Source: Candidatus Enterovibrio altilux (GTDB lineage: Bacteria; Pseudomonadota; Gammaproteobacteria; Enterobacterales; Vibrionaceae). Taken from it: a stretch of 64,000 nt of DNA. The stretch spans positions 1 to 64,000 of the forward strand of contig NZ_CP020663.1 in NCBI RefSeq assembly GCF_002381345.1, written 5' to 3'. Position 1 is the stretch's first letter; every line of letters begins with the position of its first letter. The notes below the pieces were generated by a model. It worked only from the letters and a program-made list of their open reading frames with translations. It did not search any database and had not been told where the DNA came from. The position numbers and the translations under genes are program-made. Shown here one piece after another: positions 5,901-61,737 of the stretch.

Positions 5901-6198
5901 GGTTCTGTTTCTTAATTCAAATTCAGATAGCAAATCCCAACATAATTTACTATTAGACGAGTGCTTGCATTTTAGGTATATCTAGCCCGATTAAATTATT
6001 TAACATTTTTATTATTACGTAGGTTTCGCCAATCTGAGTCTTCTACTCCCTTTAGCTTAGATTAGAAAAACTTACACTATACCATGACGACAGCATTAAA
6101 TAAGCTATTAAAGCTAAGTATGCCTAACACGAAAGCAATTGTCTAGTAGTTCATCATATTAGTATTTGCTGTCTGAACCTGAATGAGGAAATAAAAAT
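5901..6198. mobile_element. MITE-like palindromic element made of two IS right ends
   Basis: The left ~155 bp is the right end of the local IS in minus orientation (starts GGTTCTGTTTCTTAATTC). The right ~140 bp is the same end in plus orientation (ends GAATGAGGAAATAAAAATT). The halves meet near 6057-6060, where both contain the CTTAGATTAG region. Total ~298 bp, non-coding, with long imperfect terminal inverted repeats. It lies between ndk and rlmN. Confidence 0.75.
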
Positions 6199-8717: not shown

Positions 8718-9111
8718 CCTGGGTCTGCTTGAGCAAGCCGGACAGCATTTTACCTTCAGCCATATTCAATGAACTTGACTAGCAGCAATAATTTTACACG
8801 CATTTATATCTATCAATAAATGTAACAAATGTTAAATTCTACGCTCACCGTGAGTATTAGGTTTTGTTTTCTAATTTGAATTCAAATAATAAATCTCAAC
8901 ATGATTCACTATTAGACAATCGCTTTCGTGCTAAGTATACTTAGTCTTGTCAGACTTATTTTAAGCTTTTATCATTGTACCAGTTCAGCTAATCTAGGCT
9001 GTATGATTCCTTAGGTTCAGTATCCCTCCAAGTAGTATCTTAGCTCAAACCATTTCTGTCTCTGCTAGAGAATGTTTAAGGTAGCCGACTTTATCCTTTA
9101 AATAAAGAAAC
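8718..9111 (-). mobile_element. Two abutting IS remnants, the second with the composite junction
   Basis: 8718-8833 is a minus-strand piece of the transposase middle (GGTCTGCTTGAGCAAG). 8860-9086 is a minus-strand right end (starts GGTTTTGTTTTCTAATTT) that ends in AAGGTAGCC. It runs straight into GACTTTATCCTTTAAATAAAG (9087 onward), a degraded left inverted repeat of a forward copy whose body is missing. The breakpoint matches the other composites. Confidence 0.7.
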
Positions 9112-10968: not shown

Positions 10969-12300
10969 GGCTTTGCATCCTAATTCGAAATTAAATAGTA
11001 AATTTTAACATGATGAACTGTTAGAAAATTACCTTCATGTTAAGCATACTTAGTCCCGCCAGCATATTCAATGCTTTGATCATGCCGTATATTTCGCTAA
11101 TCTGAGCGTTATAACCTATGAAACTCAATGTCCTTCTGAGTAGTTTTTTAACTCGAAACATTGCCGTCTCTGATAAGAAGCGTTTATGGTAAATAGCTTT
11201 ATTTTTTAAGTAAAAAACTGAATTTTTCATTAATATTCTAAACAGTTAGGCTCATTTAAATATTCAGATCTATGAACAATCTTAGCTACAAAACAACTAA
11301 CTGAAAGCAGTATAATCAAGCTTTAATTAATCGTGGTCCACTCACATTTTGAATTGATAAAAAAACTATTTAGTTATGGAATCAAACTAAGCAGAATGAT
11401 CATGGGAGACCTCATCTATTGAGCAATTTAGCCATTACGATAGTCCTCATAGTTAAATGCGTCTTTTCAATGCCATGGAGAGGTCTGCAAAGATTAATTA
11501 ATTCTGTTTTCAAACTTGCTCAACTGCCCTTGTCATGCCCTTACTATTCATGCATTAGCAAGCGAGCCACAATGATGAACGTCATGTTCAAGACGAAGAC
11601 TAAAGGAACCATCCAACACTTAGCTATTGATCTTACAGAGCTCAAAATCTACGGTGAAAACGAGTGGAAAGTAAAAAAGCATGGTATTGATGAGAAACGG
11701 CAAGTTTGGCGTAAGTTCCATTTAGGAGTAGATATAAATACGCATGAAATAGTTGCCGCTGAATTAAACGCATTAAATGTAACTGATGGTGAAGTACTAC
11801 CTAACTGACTCAAACAGACTCGCTGAAAAATTAATTAAATATCAACCGATGGTGCTTACGGCACCAGACAATGTTACGAGGCCGTTCGTACTAAGCGAAC
11901 GGTTCACTAATCCCATCAAGAAGAAGTATAACTTCTGAAAAACTAGGTTACCCGCGTAATTTAGCGATTAGTTATCAGGAGTTATACGGTTCAAATCAAC
12001 ATTGGTAGGCGTAGTTGCTATAAGCGTCCCTATCCGGATGGGCGAGATGTCGAATCAAAAACGGCTCGGAGGAATATTGAAACTGAGGCATTACAATGCC
12101 CAGACTAGCGAAATCTACACATGATAAAAACATTAAATAAGCTGATAGGGCTAGCTATGCTTAGAATGCCAGCGAACTAAAATGGTTACACATATTGAAC
12201 GTGCTATATAAACTTGCATTAAAATATTATGTAGCAAAGGCGAACGGTTAATATTACACATCAAAGAAAGTTTATCTGAGATTGCATTAAGAAAAAATAC
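10969..12300 (+). mobile_element. Composite IS5-family element: inverted right end plus full forward copy
   Basis: 10969 to ~11192 is a minus-strand right end (GGCTTTGCATCCTAATTC onward). It joins at TTTATGGTAAA to a forward copy starting AGCTTTATTTTTTAAG (~11195) and running to ~12233. The longest surviving transposase piece in the window, 129 aa (11419-11808), includes GTIQHLAIDLTELKIYG (first Asp region) and GVDINTHEIVAAELNA. A stop follows at the PN-LKQT position. A second ~60 bp right-end fragment (12238-12300, ending TTGCATTAAGAAAAAAT) is repeated in tandem. Confidence 0.82.
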
Positions 12301-12356
12301 AAAATATTTCACTCACGCCTAAGCGTATGGTATATTCAAAATACCGTCATTTTTTA

Positions 12357-13175
12357 TCAATTTTTAAAAACCTTATTACTTCGTTGTATTGTGCCATTCT
12401 TGCTAATTTTAGCCAGGATCTCTTTAAGTACTTTAGGGCTAGCAGAAATAATATTGCCTGATTCTATATAATCAGTGCCACCTGTGAAGTCTGTGCACAG
12501 TGCACCAGCTTCACGAGCAATAAATTCACCAGCCGCTATATCCCAAGATTTAAGACTTAGCTCGAATAAACCATCTACACGGCCAGCGGCTACGTAGCAC
12601 AGGTCAAGCGCAGCAGAACCCATACACCGGAGGTCTACACAATCAATAAGCAGGGCACTAATAACTTTGATAAAATCTTCAGAGTGTTTCTTAGCTTTGT
12701 ATGGAAAACCTGTCGCTATAATCGTACCAAATAAATTTTTAGGGTTGCTAACGCGGATACGTTTATTATTAAGTTGTGCACCAGAACCACGTTGGGAAGT
12801 AAACAGCTCATTGCGGATTGGGTCATACACACAGGCTACTTCTGTACGACCTCTAACGCGTAATGCAATAGAGACTGAAAAATGAGGAATGCCTTTAATG
12901 AAGTTAGAAGTGCCATCCAATGGGTCAATGATCCATTGATAATCAGCATTTTTACCTTTAATTACACCAGCTTCTTCAGAAACTATGCCATGTTCGGAGT
13001 AAGACTTCTTGATTACATCAATAATGATGTGTTCTGCAAAAGTATCAATATTGGTAATAACGTCATTAGCACCTTTTTGAATCGCTTCTACATTATCGAA
13101 ATTTTCAGCAGATCTAGCAATAAAGTCACCAGCCTTTCGCGCTGCACGAATAGCAATATTTAGCATTGGATGCAT
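12357..13175 (-). CDS. suhB: Inositol-1-monophosphatase family protein SuhB
   Basis: Mg-dependent inositol monophosphatase that in enterobacteria also acts in rRNA transcription antitermination. 272 aa (E. coli 267). Metal-binding motifs are present: SEEAG, WIIDPLDGTSNFIKG, and near the C-terminus KSWDIAAGEFIAREAG. The C-terminal tail after KISKNG is somewhat longer than usual. The ATG at 13175 is the natural family start (MHPMLNIAIRAARKAG). suhB and trmJ are divergent neighbours as in other gammaproteobacteria, now separated by a composite IS. Confidence 0.95.
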   Translation of the reverse strand: MHPMLNIAIRAARKAGDFIARSAENFDNVEAIQKGANDVITNIDTFAEHIIIDVIKKSYSEHGIVSEEAGVIKGKNADYQWIIDPLDGTSNFIKGIPHFSVSIALRVRGRTEVACVYDPIRNELFTSQRGSGAQLNNKRIRVSNPKNLFGTIIATGFPYKAKKHSEDFIKVISALLIDCVDLRCMGSAALDLCYVAAGRVDGLFELSLKSWDIAAGEFIAREAGALCTDFTGGTDYIESGNIISASPKVLKEILAKISKNGTIQRSNKVFKN

Positions 13176-13233
13176 ACAAATTTTCCAGCTGATATTAAAG
13201 AATGGAAAGAAATAGTAAGTTTATCATAGCTGA

Positions 13234-14492
13234 GGTTTGGTTTCCTAATTCAAAGTTAGATCATAGATCCCAACATAATGAGCTATTAGACAATCACTTT
13301 CGTTTTTTACATGCCTAGCCATGTCAACTCATGCATAAGTTTCTCTAATCTGAGCTTTGTGCTCTTTTAAGCACAATGTCCCCTCACACTAATTTTTTAA
13401 CTCTAACCATTGCTATTTCTGTTAGGGAACATTTATGGTAATCGGCTTTACTTCCTAAATCAGGGAACTCAATTTTCAACCAACACTCTAAACAGCTAGG
13501 CTAACTTAAATATTCAGGTCTATGAATAAGCTTCGCTAAAAAATAACTCATTGGAAGTTAGTATGATCAAGTTTTAATCAATCGTGGCTCACTAATATTT
13601 TAAATTAATAAATAAGCCATTCAGCTATGGAATAAAACTAAACAGGGTAATCATGGGAGACTTCGTTTATTTAACGACTTAGCCATTCCGACGGTTCTCA
13701 TGGTTAAACGTGTATTTCCAATGCGATTAGGGATCTGCAAGGATTTATTAATTTTTTTGTAAACTGGCTCAATGGGTATTGTTATGTCCTCACTATTCAT
13801 ATATTAGCAATCGAGCCAAAACAGTTAACGTTTCGTTCAATACGAAGACTAGAGGAATCATCCAACATGGAGCAATTGATTCTATGGGTTCAAAATCTGC
13901 GGTGAAGGCAAATGAAGAGTAAAAAAGCATGGCATTGATGGGGAAACAACGAATCTGGCGTAAGTTACATTTAGCGGTATATATAAGTACGCATGAAATC
14001 ATTGCTGCTGAGTTAAGTGCATCAAATGTAACTGACGGTAACGTGTTACCTAACTGGTTCAAACAGACCAGCCGCAGAATCAATGAAATATTAAGCAATG
14101 AAGCTTACGACACCAGACAATGTTACGAATCCGTTCGTATTAAACGAGGGGTTCCACTCATACCACCAAAAAAGACGTCGCCTTTTCGAAACGAGGTTAT
14201 CCGCGTAACTTAGCAGTCAGTTACCCACAGTGATACGATTTCAATAAACATTGTAAAACAAAGTATGGTTACCATATACGTTCCCTATCAAAGATGGCAA
14301 TGTTTCAAGTCAAACAACTACTTGGAGGAACATTGAGTTTAAAAAATCATAATGCTCATATTAGCGAAACTTACGCCATGATAAAAGTGTTACATAAACT
14401 GACTAGGCTAAGTATATCTAAAATAGAAGTGGTTATTTAACCATTAATCATGTTGAAATTTATCATCTGAACCCGAATTAGGAAACAAAACC
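13234..14492 (+). mobile_element. Composite IS5-family element (clearest example)
   Basis: 13234 to ~13443 is a minus-strand right end (GGTTTGGTTTCCTAATTC onward), joined at TTTATGGTAATC to a forward left end GGCTTTACTTCCTAAATC. The forward copy then continues to its own right end GAATTAGGAAACAAAACC at 14492. Both outer termini are therefore right ends. Transposase fragments: MALMGKQRIWRKLHLAVY, ISTHEIIAAELSASNVTDGN and NEAYDTRQCYESVRIKRG in 13929-14213. Frames are broken elsewhere. Confidence 0.87.
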
Positions 14493-26480: not shown

Positions 26481-27257
26481 GGCTTTATTGTCTGCTTAGA
26501 ATTTAGATAGCAACTCCCAACATGATATGCTATTAGATGCTCGCTTTTGTTTTAGGCATGCCTAGCCCTGTCAGCTTGTTTAATCCTTTTCTCATGGCGT
26601 TGGTTTATCCATCTAGACCTTGCTGCTAAATAAGGGCCCAAATTATCAATTGATGTTATAGACAGCTGAGTTTGTTTAAATATTTATGCCTATGGTCACA
26701 TTTCCCTATAAAATAGTTAACTGGACGTTGTATACTCAAACTTTAATTATCATGGTTCACTAATATTCTGGCTTTATGAAGAAGCTAATCAGCTATGAAA
26801 TTAAACTAAGCCGGTAATTACGAGAAACCTCGTTCATTAAGTAACTGAACGATTATGAATGATTTTTTCATGGCCAAACGTGTATTTTCAATGTTATCAA
26901 TAGAGCTGTTAGATTTATTCATTAACCCAGAATGTTAGTAAGCGACGATTGCTCATAGACCTGAATATTGAAGTGAGCCTAATTCTTTAGACTATTGATT
27001 AAAATATAGTTTTTTTATTTAGGAATAAAACTGATTATCATAAACGTTCGATAGCAAAGACAGCAATGATTCGAGTCAAAAAAACACGGGAGTAACATTG
27101 AGCCTAAGGAATAACACAACTCAAATTAGTGAAACCGACGTCATAATAAACGTGTTAAATAAGCTGACAAGATTGGGTATACCTAAGACTAAAGTAATTG
27201 TCTAATAGTGAATCATGTGGAAATTTGCTATCTGAACTCGAATTGGCGAGCAAAGCC
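26481..27257. mobile_element. Nested palindromic IS remnant
   Basis: Four pieces in order: inverted right end (26481 to ~26620, starts GGCTTTATTGTC); forward left half (~26625-26925, including TATGAAATTAAACTAAGC); inverted left end (~26930-27035, ending TTTAGGAATAAAAC); forward right end (~27036-27257, ending GGCGAGCAAAGCC). The third-to-fourth junction (GGAATAAAACTGATTATCATAAACG) is the composite junction read on the minus strand. No ORF. Confidence 0.7.
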
Positions 27258-31218: not shown

Positions 31219-32158
31219 GGCTTTATTTCCTAATTTGAGTTCAGACAACAAACCCCACATGATTCACTACTGAACAGTCGCTTTTGTTTTAGGCATACCT
31301 AATCTGGTCAGCTTCTTTAACACTTTTATCATGGCGTAGGTTGCACTGATCTGAATTATATGATCCCTTAGACTCAATTTTGTTGGCAGTAGTTTTTTGA
31401 CTCAAACCATTGCTGTTTCTGCTAGGCAACGTTTATTGTAACTGATTTTATTTCCTCAATAAGGAACTAAATTTTCAATTAATACTCTAAACAGTTAGGC
31501 TCACTAACATTTTAAATTAATGGAAAAACTATTTAGTTATGGAATTAAACTAAGCGAGCAATCATGGGAGGATTCGTTTATTTTCCAATTTAGTTATTAA
31601 TTCCACGGGGTTCCAAGTCTACGGCGAAGAAAAATAAAAAATAAAAAGCATTGTTTAATGGGAAACGGCAAGTCTGGCGCAAGCTACATTTAGCGGTAGA
31701 TATCAATACGCATAAAATCATTATTGCTGAGTTAAGTACATCAAATGTGACTGACGGTGAAGTGCTACCTAGCTGACTCAAACAGACCCGTCGAAAAATC
31801 AACGCAATATCAGTCGATAGTGCTTACGACACCAGACAATTTAAACAAGCGGGTCCACCCACACTACCAAGAAAAGAAGTAACTTGTTAGGGACGAAGTT
31901 ATACGATGCCAATCAGCATTGTAAAATGACGTATGGTTACCATAAACGTTCCTGTCAGAGACAGCAATGATTCGAGTCAAAAAACTACTGGAAGGAACAT
32001 TAAGCTTAAGAAATTATAATGCTAAAATTAACAAGACTTATGTCATTATAAAAACGTTAAATACTTTGACCGAACTAAAGTATGTCTACAATAAAAGCGA
32101 TTATCTAATAATTTATTACATTTGAATGTGCTATCTGAATTCAAATCAAAAACAAAGT
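31219..32158 (+). mobile_element. Composite IS5-family element with internal deletions
   Basis: 31219 to ~31442 is an inverted right end (GGCTTTATTTCCTAATTTG). It joins at TTTATTGTAACT to a forward left end GATTTTATTTCCTCAAT (~31444). The forward copy has lost two internal segments (after TTAGGCTCACT and after TTTAGTTATTA) and ends at AAACAAAGTC (~32158). Transposase remnants are in 31660-31830. Confidence 0.8.
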
Positions 32159-36349: not shown

Positions 36350-37399
36350 AGCTTTGTTTCCTAAATCAGGAAACTAAATAATCAAATTATGCTCTAAACA
36401 GCTAGGTTCATTTAAAAATTCAAGTCTATGAACAAGCTCCGCTACAAAACAACTAATTGGAAGCAAGATAATCATGCTCTAATTCATAATGACACTGACA
36501 TTCTGGATTGATGTTAAAATTATTCAGCTATGAAATAAAACTAAGCAGGGAATCGTAAAAAATTACGTTTATTTATTAATTTAGCTATTTCCATAGTTCT
36601 CGTAATAAAAGGCATATTTTTAATGCTATTGAAAGGTCTGTAAGGGTTTATTAATTCTATTTTTTAATTTACTCAACTGCCATTGTAATGCCTTTCTTAT
36701 TTAAGGCGTTAGTAAACGAGCTACCATGGCGAACGTTACGTGTAAGACTAAGATTAGAGAAACTATTCAGCACTTAGCTATTAATCCTACGGGGCTCAAA
36801 GTCTGCGGTGGAGGCGAATTAAAAGTAAAAAAGCATGGCATGGGCGGTACACGTCGAGTTTAGCACAAGCCACATTTAGAGGTAGCTATAAATACACATG
36901 AAATCATTGTTGCTGAGTTAAGTGCATCAAATATGACTGATGGTGAAGTACTACCTAAGTTTCTCAAACGGACTCAGCAAAGAGCCAAGGAAATATTAGG
37001 CAATGGTGCTGACGAGACCAGACAATGTTACAAAACCGTTCGTGTTAAACGAGTGATTTCAATCATTCCACCAAGAAAAGGAGCAACTTTTAGGTAACGA
37101 AATCATTCGCATAATTTAGCGGTCAATTACCAGAAGTTATGCGGTTCAAATAAGCATTAGTAAACGAAGTGTGGTTACTATAAATATTCCCTATAAAATG
37201 CGATAATATTTTGAGTTGAAAAACTCTTCGGAGGGACATTGAGCTTAAGGAATCACCCTGTACATATTAGGAAACCCTACACAATGATAAAAACGTGAGA
37301 TAAACTGATAGGGATCGATTATGCCTAAAACGTAAACGATCGTCTGAGAGCTCATCATGTTGGGATTTCCTATCTGAACGTGAATTAGGAAACAATGCC
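36350..37399 (+). mobile_element. IS5-family copy inserted between rsxC and rsxD
   Basis: Simple forward copy of 1,050 bp from GCTTTGTTTCCTAAATC to GAATTAGGAAACAATGCC. Transposase frames are broken throughout; recognisable bits include the region after AAAAGCATGGCATGGG and ATTGTTGCTGAGTTAAGT. It splits the rsx operon in the sense orientation. Flanks do not show a convincing duplication. Confidence 0.87.
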
Positions 37400-43127: not shown

Positions 43128-43131
43128 ACTT

Positions 43132-44313
43132 GGTTTTTTAATTCGACTTCAGATAGCATAACCCTACATAATTCACGATTAAACAATCGCTTTCATATTA
43201 AGCATACATAACTTTGCTAGCTTATGTAATGCTTTTATCATGACGTTGGTTTCACGAACCTGAGTTATGTGATTTCTTAGACTCAATGTGCATATTAGTA
43301 GTTTTTTGACTCGAACTACTACAGTCTCTACTATGAGAGGTTTATGGTAACCTGCTTTATTTTTTAAATTAGGGAACTAAATTTTTAATTGAAACTTTAA
43401 ACAGTTAGACTCACTAAAATATTCAGATCTATGAATAATTTAGCTGCAAAGCAACTAACTGAAAGCAGTACAACCAAACTTTAATCAATCGCAGCTAACT
43501 AATATTCTGGATTAATAAAGCAGCTATTCAGCTATGAAATCAAACTGAGCAGAGTAATCATGGGAGACCCTGTTTATTTAACGACTTAGCCATCACGACG
43601 GCCCTCATAGTTAGATGCATATTTTCAATGCCATTATCATACCCTCATTATTCATGCATGAGCAAGCGAGTTAAAACAGTTAACGTCACGTTCAAAGTGA
43701 ACGAATAAAGGAATGCACAGGACTTAGCCATTGATTATACGGGCCTGCAAAGCAATGGTGAAAGAGAGTAACGAGTTTAGCATAAGTTACATTTAGTGGT
43801 AGATATAAATATGCATGAAACCATTACTGTTATGTTCGATGAATTACATATGATTGACGGTGAAGTGCTACCTAATTTACTCAAATAGACCCACCTAAAA
43901 ATCAATGAAATATCAGGCGATGGTGCTTATGATACCAGACAATGTTACAAAAACATTCGTATTAAACGAGAGGTTCCACTCCTCCCATCAAAAAAATATA
44001 ATTTTTGAAACCAAAGTTAACCATGTAATTGAATGGCCAGTTACCGACAGTTATATGGTTCAAATCAGTATTGGAAAATGAAGTATGATTATTATAAACA
44101 CTCCCTATTAAAAATGACAATATTTTAAATTAAAAAACGACTTGGAGGGACATTGAACTGAAGGGCTCACCATGCTCAGATTAGTGGAATCTGCGTCATG
44201 ATAAAATAGTTCAATAAGCTGACAGGACTAAGTATGCCAAAATGAAAGCGCTTGTCTAATAGTTCATCAGGTTGATGACTTACTATCTGAACTTGCATTA
44301 AGAAATAAAGTTT
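43132..44313 (+). mobile_element. Composite IS5-family element
   Basis: 43132 to ~43351 is an inverted right end (GGTTTTTTAATTCGAC). It joins at TTTATGGTAACC to a forward left end TGCTTTATTTTTTAAATTAG (43353), which continues to CATTAAGAAATAAAGTTT (~44313). The forward body is short of the full length by internal deletion. No transposase ORF survives. Confidence 0.82.
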
Positions 44314-48091: not shown

Positions 48092-49312
48092 GACTTTGTT
48101 TCCTAATGCTTATTTAGATAGCAACCTCAATATGATTAACTATTAAACAATCACTTTTATTTTAGCCATACCTAGTCCTGCCAGCTTATTTAACGCTATT
48201 ATGATAGCGTAGATTTCGCTTATCTGAACTGTATGATCCCTTAGGCTCAATGTTCTTCCCAATGTTTTTTTGACTTGGAACATTGCTATCTCTGCCAAAA
48301 AACATTTATGTAACCGACTTTATTTTCTCAATTAGATAACTAAATTTTTAATCAACACTCTAAACAGTTAGATTAACTTAAATATTTAAATCTATGAACC
48401 AGCTTAGCTACAAAGCAACTCACTGGAAGCAATATAATTAAGTTTTAATCAACCGGGGCTCACTAAAATTCTGAATTCATGAAAGAACCATTCAGCTATG
48501 GAATAAAACTAAGCAGGGTAATCATGGAAGACTTCGTTTATTTAATCACTTAACTATTATAATGGCCCTCGTGGTTAAATGCGTATTTTCAATACTATTG
48601 AAAAGTCTGCAAGGCTTCATTAACTCTATTTTTAAACTTGCTCAACTTCCATTTTCATGCCCTCACTATTCATGCATTAGCAAGCGAACCAAAACAGTTA
48701 ACGTCGCGTTCAAAACGAAGATTAAAGGAGTTATCCAGCATTTAGCCATTGCTGCTACAGGGCTAAAAATCTACGGTGAAGGAAAAGAGAAAATAAAAAA
48801 ACATGACACTAATAAGAAACTACTAGCCTGCCACGAATTCCATATAGCAATAAATATAAATACACATGCATGCAATAACTACCGCTGAGTTGAGTGCATT
48901 AAATGTGGCTAACGGTGAAAGACAACCTAACTTACTCAAACAAAGCCGCTTAAAAATTAATTTGATCTCAGGCGATGGTTGCTTACGAGACTAAACAATG
49001 TTATAGGACCGTTTGTATTAAACGAGCGGTTCCATTCATCCCACCACGAAAGGGAGAAATTTTTTAAAAACAATCTCATCCGCGTAATTTAACGGTCAGC
49101 TACTCTAAGTTATACGGTTCCAATCAGCATTGAAAAACAAAGTATGATTACTATAAATGCTTTCTATCAAAGAAGGCAATGTTTCGAGTCAAAAAACTAC
49201 TGGGAGGAGCATTGGACTTAAGAGATCACATACTCAGATTAGCGAAACCTATGCCATGGTAAAAGTGTTAAATCAGCTGATAGTGCTAAGTATGCCTAAA
49301 ATGAAAGCAATT
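48092..49312 (+). mobile_element. Composite IS5-family element, right end truncated
   Basis: 48092 to ~48313 is an inverted right end (GACTTTGTTTCCTAATGC). It joins at TTTATGTAACC to a forward left end GACTTTATTTTCTCAATTAG (~48315). The forward copy encodes a 108-aa transposase piece (48562-48888; KTVNVAFKTKIKGVIQHL, GLKIYGEGKEK). It breaks off near 49312, ~30 bases before fabV, without its final ~60 bp. Confidence 0.8.
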
Positions 49313-49343
49313 ATCCTAAGTTAAACTGTAAGGAATATTAAAT

Positions 49344-54226: not shown

Positions 54227-55273
54227 AAATTTTATTTTCTCTTTTGAGTTCAAATAGCAAAGCTCAACATAATTAATGATTAAACAATCGCTTTCGTGTT
54301 AGACACGCCTAACCCGGTAAGATGATTTAACGTTTCTATCATGCTGGAAGCTTCGCTAATTTGAAAATAATGATCTCTTAACCTCAATGTTTTTCCGAAA
54401 AATTTTTAACCGAAACATTACCGTTCTCTAATAGAGAACATTTATGGTAATTGTACCTAGGTTTTTATGCTGATTGGAACCGTATAACTTCTGGTAATTG
54501 ACCACTAAATTACTAGTCTAAATGAAACCGCTCATTTAATGCGAACGGTTTAGTAACATTGTTTGGTGTTGTAAGTACCATCAGCTGATGCTTCATTGAT
54601 TTTTTCAGCGGGTCTATTTAAGCAAGTTAGGCAGCAACTTCACCGTCAGTCACATTTGATGTATTTAATTCAATGGCAATCATTTCATGCGCATTTATAT
54701 CTACCACTAAATGTAACTCACATCAGACTAGTCGTTTTCTATCAGTATCATGCTTTTTTACTTGTCATTCGCTTTCACGGAGACTTTGAACCCCGTAGAA
54801 TCAATGGTTAAAGTCGCTAAACAAACGAAGTTTACCATGATTACTCTGCTTAATTTGATTCTATAGCTGAATAGCTTCTTTATCCGTTCAGAATGTTAGT
54901 GAGTCACGGTTGATTAAAGCGTGATCATATTACTTCCAGTTGGTTATTTTGCAACTAAGATTGCTCATAGACTTGCATATTTAAATGGGCTTAACTGTTT
55001 AGAATGTTGATTGAACATTTAGTTCCCTTATTTAGGAAATAAAGCCGCCCACCATAAACGTTCTCTGGCAAATATGACAATGTTTTGGATCAAAAAATTA
55101 CGTGGAGGGACATTGAGAACTTCAAAAATTACAGTGCTAAGATTAGCGAAACTTACGCCATAATAAAAACGTTAAATAAATTAATAGGCCTAGGTGTGTC
55201 TAAATCAAAAATAATTATTTCATAGTAAATTATGTTGCGATTTACTATCTACAGCTCAAATTAAAAAATAAAA
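54227..55273. mobile_element. Composite IS remnant in reverse orientation
   Basis: 54227 to ~55046 is a minus-strand copy with internal deletions, from a degraded right end (TTTTATTTTCTCTTTTGAG) to the left end TTTAGGAAATAAAGCC. It joins directly to a forward right end (ACCATAAACGTTCTCTGG, ~55051-55273). Read on the minus strand this is the same composite junction as in the forward composites. Confidence 0.8.
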
Positions 55274-60487: not shown

Positions 60488-61737
60488 CGACTGTGTTTCT
60501 AATTTGAGTTCAGATAGCAAATCCCAACATGATTCATTATTAAATAATCGCTTTCATTTTAGGCACACTTAGCTCTATCAGCTCACTTAACACTGTTATT
60601 ATAACGTAGATCTCGCTAATCTGAACATTGTGATCTCTTAGGCCCAATGTCCCTCCTAGTAGTTTTTTTGACTCGAACCATTCCTATCTTTGCTAAGAAA
60701 CCTTTATAATAACTTACTTTATATCCTAAGTAATGGAACTAAATTTTCAATCAACACTCTAAACAGTTAGGCTAACTTAAATATTCAGGTCTATAAAAAA
60801 TCCTCGCCACAAAACAACTGACTGGAAGCAGTGTAATCAAAATTTAATCAATCATGGATCACTAACATTTGAGTTTGATGAATAAGCCATTCATTCTATG
60901 ACATCAAATTAAGCAAGGTAATCGTGGTAGACCTCTTGTATTTAGCGACTTTTCCATTACGATGGCCTTCATAGTTAAATGCATATTTTTAATTCTGTTT
61001 TCAAACTTGTTCAAAGAAAATTATTATGCTTTCACTATTCATGCATGAGCAAGCGAGCCAAAACAGTTAACGTCACGTTCAAGACTAAGATTAAAGGCAC
61101 CATTCCGCACTTAACCGTTGATTCTGCGGGGCTCAAAGTCCTGCGGTGAAGGCAAATGAAAAGTGAAAAAGCATGGTACTTATGGAAAACGTAAAATCTG
61201 GCACCAGTTACATTTAGCGGTAGATGTAAATACGCATGAATCATTGCGGCTGAGTTAAGTGCATCAAATGTAACTGACGGTGAAGTGCTGCCTAATTTAC
61301 TCAAAGAAATTTGCTAAAAAATCAATACAATATCAGCCGATGGTGCTTACGACACCAGACAATGTTACGAAGCCGTTCGTATTAAACGAGTGGTTCCACT
61401 CATCCCGCCAATAACAGGAGCAACTTGTTCAGAACGAGGTTATCCGCGTAATGTAGCGGTCAGTTACCAGCAGCTATACGGTTCAAATAAGCATTGAAAA
61501 ACGAAGTATAGTTACCATCAACGTTCCCTAAGCAGAAACGTCAATGTTTCGAGTCAAGGAACTCTTCGGAGGGACATTGAGCTTGAGAAATCATAATACT
61601 CAGGTTAACACAACCTACGCCATGATAAAAACGCTAAATAAACTGATAGAATTAAATATGCCTAAAGTAACCGCGATTGTTTAATAGTGAATCAGGTTGG
61701 AATCTATTCTCTGAGTTAGGATGAAGAAAGAAACCCT
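60488..61737 (+). mobile_element. Composite IS5-family element
   Basis: 60488 to ~60711 is an inverted right end (CTGTGTTTCTAATTTGAG). It joins at TTTATAATAACTT to a forward left end ACTTTATATCCTAAG (~60715), continuing to a right end GGATGAAGAAAGAAACC (~61737). Transposase motifs are readable in shifting frames (LAVDVNTHE, SADGAYDTRQCYEAVRIK). Confidence 0.84.

What the first reader, a model, noticed from the sequence alone, without database searches (positions are those of the whole stretch)
10969..14492. A recurrent chimeric IS unit: inverted right end fused to a complete forward copy
Seven loci (8860-9111, 10969-12233, 13234-14492, 31219-32158, 43132-44313, 48092-49312, 60488-61737) share one junction. 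The inverted last ~225 bp of the IS ends at GTTTATGGTAACC and is followed at once by the left terminal repeat GGCTTTATTTCC of a forward copy. Two more (54227-55273 and part of 26481-27257) show it on the other strand. Independent insertions would not repeat the exact breakpoint and always lose the rest of the inverted copy. The simplest reading is that a ~1.25 kb unit with two right ends (long terminal inverted repeats) transposed as a whole. I know of no described IS903-type derivative of this build.
Basis: partly seen in the sequence, partly recalled or inferred. Interest (0 to 1): 0.78.

Follow-up and report, generated by a model that had tools for sequence, protein, structure and literature searches.

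The report
Jumping gene with duplicated inverted end
In the reduced genome of a deep-sea anglerfish light-organ symbiont, one bacterial jumping gene acquired an extra, inverted copy of its own right end and then spread through the genome as that longer unit, an uncommon case of a mobile element changing its own boundaries.

Summary
The window is contig C2 of Ca. Enterovibrio luxaltus CC26 (2,143,356 bp, exact match to the published assembly), a genome with hundreds of decayed IS5-family copies. The inverted ~226-bp right end fused to a forward left end occurs at nine places in the window and 63-84 genome-wide (pattern limited). In 736 kb examined, 112 of 125 such fusions break at the same base.

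The unit moved as a whole. (1) Composite left ends share derived substitutions (T32, A39, A42, A7) that simple copies and Vibrio relatives lack (Fisher P 1e-11 to 1e-32). (2) The arms form their own clade (80 of 83, support 0.96). (3) 9-bp duplications flank the outer right ends in 5 of 56 (0 of 20,000 permutations). (4) The rest of an inverted target copy never follows at the break site. (5) The buried left repeat is fixed for G7A, while both outer repeats keep G. (6) About 80 relatives elsewhere are all simple ~1.05-kb ISs.

Best reading: one IS inserted into an inverted sibling; transposase then used the two outer right ends, and the buried left end decayed. The class is known (IS903-type); the architecture is a new variant.

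The parts
10969..11193 (-). inverted right-end arm of composite copy
   Evidence: nhmmer arm/right-end models; arm of the less derived type
11194..12233 (+). forward IS body (left end to right end) of the same composite
13235..13442 (-). inverted right-end arm
13443..14491 (+). forward IS body, both termini present
8861..9086 (-). inverted right-end arm; followed by ~25 bp of left end (9087-9111), rest deleted
27032..27257 (+). arm of a composite lying on the - strand; its left end is 26935-27030
26481..26617 (-). shorter arm (136 bp) abutting a forward left-end fragment at 26619-26928; deleted or separate fusion
31219..31443 (-). inverted right-end arm; body 31444-32158 has an internal deletion
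43129..43352 (-). inverted right-end arm, derived type
43353..44310 (+). forward IS body
48093..48315 (-). inverted right-end arm
48316..49316 (+). forward IS body
54233..55046 (-). IS body of a composite on the - strand
55047..55263 (+). arm of the - strand composite
60493..60713 (-). inverted right-end arm
60714..61734 (+). forward IS body
36351..37399 (+). simple (armless) full-length copy, for contrast: left end GGCTTTGTTTCCTAAATCAGG

Best explanation
This is a structural variant of an IS5-family, IS903-type insertion sequence. Its ~1.28-kb unit has two right ends: an inverted 226-bp right-end arm, then a complete forward copy. Inferred origin: an ancestral ~1.05-kb IS inserted into an inverted sibling, 225-226 bp from that sibling's right end. 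Shown by sequence: the whole unit then multiplied. Its outer ends are two right-end repeats in inverted orientation with the transposase gene between them; the rest of the target copy lies outside and was left behind. The buried left repeat became fixed for G7A plus neighbouring changes. Inferred: this weakened it and locked the element into using the arm's outer end. The element flourished during the symbiont's IS expansion and is now entirely fossil.
For: Same breakpoint in 112 of 125 fusions. Composite versus simple left ends differ at positions 7, 32, 39 and 42 (T32 96:5 versus 8:65, and so on), and the nearest Vibrio ISs (L145, L146, L220) show the simple state at nearly all of them. Arm-specific states at right-end positions 21, 36, 85-87 and 155 are rare in composite and simple right ends and nearly absent from outgroups, so derived. 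Arms: 80 of 83 in one clade, support 0.96, 22 label changes versus 72 shuffled. 9-bp duplications at outer right ends, 5 of 56 at <=2 mismatches, permuted mean 0.32, 0 of 20,000, and only at length 9. Perfect 9-bp duplications at many intact relatives. Buried left repeat position 7 A:G 94:6, against 42:106 at the outer repeats of composites (Fisher 3e-27). The derived left end is almost never found without an arm. Shared-derived similarity of arms correlates with that of the left 120 bp across loci (Mantel P about 0.003).
Against: Target duplications survive in a minority only. Arm-to-body covariation beyond the left end is not significant (P about 0.11); arm-to-left derived-state correlation is P 0.11 by rank and 0.02 by Fisher. 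Some arms are mosaic or body-like, so arm and right end have exchanged sequence, or the junction formed more than once. The founder nested locus was not found. No copy is intact, so nothing can be assayed as it stands.
Confidence: 0.88

Rival explanations
1. Insertion hot spot: simple ISs repeatedly and independently inserted at one preferred internal site of inverted sibling copies, and the rest of each target was later lost.
For: The break lies by a near-palindrome (ATGGTTACCAT), and IS903 is said to favour symmetric targets (own knowledge, not tested here). Eight same-junction copies have the ancestral left end.
Against: Arms cluster together and apart from other right ends. Left ends of composites share derived bases rarely seen in simple copies. 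None of 74 composites is followed by the inverted target at the break site. Outer right ends carry 9-bp duplications.
Confidence: 0.05
2. Same mobile composite, but the founder arose by a replication template switch or other rearrangement at the near-palindrome rather than by nested insertion; amplification as above.
For: Palindrome ATGGTTACCAT at the breakpoint; the founder nested locus is not in the genome.
Against: The join falls exactly at the left terminal base (GGTAACC|GGCTTT), which is what transposase-made insertion gives and template switching need not give. The arm's derived right-end type also occurs in one simple copy (C1 984569-985598), so a separate donor copy is possible.
Confidence: 0.15
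3. Two or more independent foundings of the same architecture: the main junction at 826 plus others at 845-926 with ancestral left ends.
For: About seven fusions with other breakpoints, mostly shorter arms, carry simple-type left ends.
Against: They may be deletions across the join of early composites, and each is a single fossil copy; the main junction still dominates 112 of 125.
Confidence: 0.3
4. Assembly artefact.
For: Short-read assembly of a highly repetitive genome (PMC6020299).
Against: Copies differ from their consensus by ~16% each and arms from right ends by ~24%, flanks are all different, and over 100 loci agree to the base.
Confidence: 0.01

Closest known systems
IS5 family, IS903-type insertion sequences of Vibrio and Shewanella (annotated 'IS5-like element ISVa2 family')
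   Same: Transposase (consensus about 81-86% identical), ~1.05-kb simple form, GGCTTTGTT termini, 9-bp target duplication
   Different: The composite has an extra inverted 226-bp right end and a mutated internal left repeat; none of the ~80 relatives has this
Plant Mutator-like elements with multiple long TIRs (Ferguson and Jiang 2012, PMC3310237)
   Same: Extra terminal repeat, amplified copies, divergence of the internal repeat, and no single-repeat copies derived from the multi-repeat ones
   Different: Eukaryotic, mostly tandem repeats at both ends, different transposase superfamily
Bacterial composite transposons such as Tn903 (own knowledge)
   Same: Outer ends of two IS copies used together to mobilise everything between
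   Different: There the two IS copies flank cargo; here one copy is reduced to its right end and abuts the other with no cargo
Bacterial MITEs and miniature inverted-repeat elements (own knowledge)
   Same: Units defined only by paired inverted ends
   Different: Those lack a transposase gene; this unit keeps the whole gene

Membership tests
IS5 family, IS903-type | DDE transposase of the family | tested here: met
   Consensus hits NF033579 transpos_IS5_2 363 bits (cut-off 140), PF13737 and PF01609; all genomic copies are reported as pseudogenes (PMC6020299)
IS5 family, IS903-type | ~18-bp terminal repeats beginning GGCTTTGTT | tested here: met
   Outer repeats of composites and both repeats of simple copies
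IS5 family, IS903-type | 9-bp target duplication | tested here: met
   Perfect in many relatives; 5 of 56 composites at <=2 mismatches versus 0.32 expected; simple copies here too few to show it (1 of 41)
IS5 family, IS903-type | single ~1.05-kb unit with one left and one right end | tested here: not met
   Composite is ~1.28 kb with two right ends; simple copies do meet it
Composite transposon | two whole IS copies flanking cargo | tested here: not met
   One copy is only a 226-bp end and there is no cargo
MITE | no transposase gene | tested here: not met
   Full transposase reading frame in the composite consensus apart from one stop codon, probably a decayed TGG
Multi-TIR MULE-like behaviour | outer repeats used, inner repeat diverged | tested here: met
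   G7A 94:6 at inner, G kept as majority at outer; works alike, not a member
Current mobility | active transposition of the composite | not testable with these tools
   All copies are fossils; needs a bench assay

The most novel reading that the evidence does not exclude
A bacterial IS shifted its own boundary in nature: it captured a sibling's right end, its original left end was inactivated by mutation (G7A and neighbours), and the longer two-right-end form became one of the main mobile lineages (roughly a third of copies with a left end) during a symbiont's genome reduction.
Probability: 0.6. Interest if true: 0.6.

Novelty: new variant of a known kind. Interest (0 to 1): 0.5.

Why it matters
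It is a well-replicated natural case, with about a hundred fossils examined, of an insertion sequence gaining a new end by nested insertion and then locking it in. It gives a testable route by which IS elements acquire long terminal repeats, and shows in bacteria the same pattern reported for multi-repeat plant Mutator elements. It also explains part of the IS load that shaped a reduced symbiont genome.

Tried and rejected
An exact-junction scan of named genomes found nothing, its own genome being left out. Target duplications of lengths other than 9 showed no excess. A founder nested locus was sought and not found. Nested insertions of composites into other copies gave only one case, with a 56-bp gap and no duplication. 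A similar flank at an IS left end in another Enterovibrio genome (G017) has no arm and is probably chance. A 295-bp right-right miniature form was found at two loci but is not a multi-copy family.

Full report
What it is in. The assembly holding the window has 2,143,356 bases in 4 contigs, the largest 1,604,691. These are exactly the figures published for Ca. Enterovibrio luxaltus CC26, luminous symbiont of the anglerfish Cryptopsaras couesii (PMC6020299). That paper counts 672 IS5-family transposase genes there, none complete; the passages I read do not mention the fused structure. In the window this one IS covers 20,042 of 64,000 bases.

The observation. The junction in the finding is present at all nine places. 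The strict 19-mer gives 63 genomic hits with 0 in the reversed control. I fetched 736 kb: all stretches around those hits plus 20 stretches of 20 kb and the window. Profile searches there found 127 inverted right ends next to a left end. Of 125 left ends that abut an inverted piece, 112 break at body position 826 give or take two. In ten blocks chosen without regard to hits (244 kb) there were 20 arm sites, so a rough genome total is 150-200; this is an extrapolation.

Simple copies also exist. In the larger blocks 70 of 106 left ends have no arm; some of those have damaged arms. About 80 related ISs from Vibrio, Shewanella and Photobacterium are simple, about 1.05 kb where complete, many with perfect 9-bp duplications and none with an arm. 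The simple form is therefore taken as ancestral. The transposase consensus is an IS5-family protein by Pfam and NCBIfam, 81% identical to proteins annotated ISVa2 family.

Was the unit mobilised whole? First, the left ends of composites carry T32, A39, A42 and A7, where simple copies and the nearest outgroups mostly carry A, T, G, G. Second, arms carry derived bases at right-end positions 21, 36, 85-87 and 155 that are rare in composite and simple right ends and nearly absent from outgroups, and in a tree of 217 right ends they fall mainly in one clade of 80 arms among 83. Third, 9-bp duplications bracket the outer right ends in 5 of 56 composites, with a permuted mean of 0.32 and no permutation in 20,000 reaching 5; other lengths show nothing. 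Given ~16% decay per copy, many true duplications would no longer pass the 2-mismatch limit. Fourth, if simple copies had inserted into inverted targets at each place, the rest of the target should follow; in 74 composites it never does at the break site, and the expected sequence is absent genome-wide.

Which ends were used? At position 7 of the terminal repeat the arm's outer end has G 59, A 26; the composite's right end G 47, A 16; simple left ends G 32, A 28; the composite's buried left end G 6, A 94. G-to-A decay affects all of them, but only the buried end is near fixation. Derived left ends without an arm are almost absent: of eight candidates four show arm remnants or run off the fetched stretch, and the others match only partly. 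The simplest inference is that the buried left end stopped working and only the outer pair moved.

Complications. Some arms are mosaics, with derived inner and ancestral outer segments, or are wholly right-end-like, including 10969-11192 in this window. Eight same-junction copies have ancestral left ends; in the separate scoring, four of the five composites with a mostly ancestral left end also have mostly ancestral arms, which fits an early stage before the derived changes. About seven fusions with other breakpoints (742-926) have ancestral left ends and may be separate events or deletions. Shared-derived similarity between arm and left end across loci is significant (Mantel P about 0.003), but arm against the remaining body is not (P about 0.11).

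Origin and mechanism. Shown: the architecture, common descent, joint amplification and the different fate of inner and outer repeats. Inferred: that the founder was an IS inserted into an inverted sibling, and that transposase paired the two outer right ends. The exact join at the left terminal base favours insertion over template switching.

Comparison and novelty. The transposase and ends make it an IS903-type IS5-family element; the architecture fails the usual one-left-one-right definition. The nearest parallel I found is plant Mutator-like elements with extra terminal repeats, in which the internal repeat diverged and no single-repeat copies arose from multi-repeat ones (PMC3310237). Eight paper searches found no bacterial IS of this build, judged from titles and abstracts, and the library is partial. 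The junction is absent from other Vibrionaceae genomes in a draw of 298 that included this one; the few hits elsewhere are at 2 mismatches, at about the rate of the reversed control.

Noticed in passing
window 5902-6194; L126 18548-18827 (C1 158548-158827): Two ~295-bp right-right near-palindromes sharing the same centre (GCTCA microhomology), a miniature form with the whole body deleted; only two loci found in the genome.
   Followed up: partly
C1 984569-985598: A simple copy whose right end is almost fully of the arm-specific type: either a relic of the arm's donor lineage or a recombinant.
   Followed up: no
arms at C1 520050-520274, C1 1173909-1174131, C1 1442341-1442566, C3 112286-112509: Mosaic arms: inner part arm-type, outer ~90 bp right-end-type, suggesting exchange between the two inverted ends.
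   Followed up: partly
C1 152683, 154420, 253000, 413198, 576859, 800327: Right-end/left-end fusions with shorter arms and ancestral left ends; possible independent foundings.
   Followed up: partly
window 26481-27257: Two such fusions face to face with both bodies largely deleted.
   Followed up: partly
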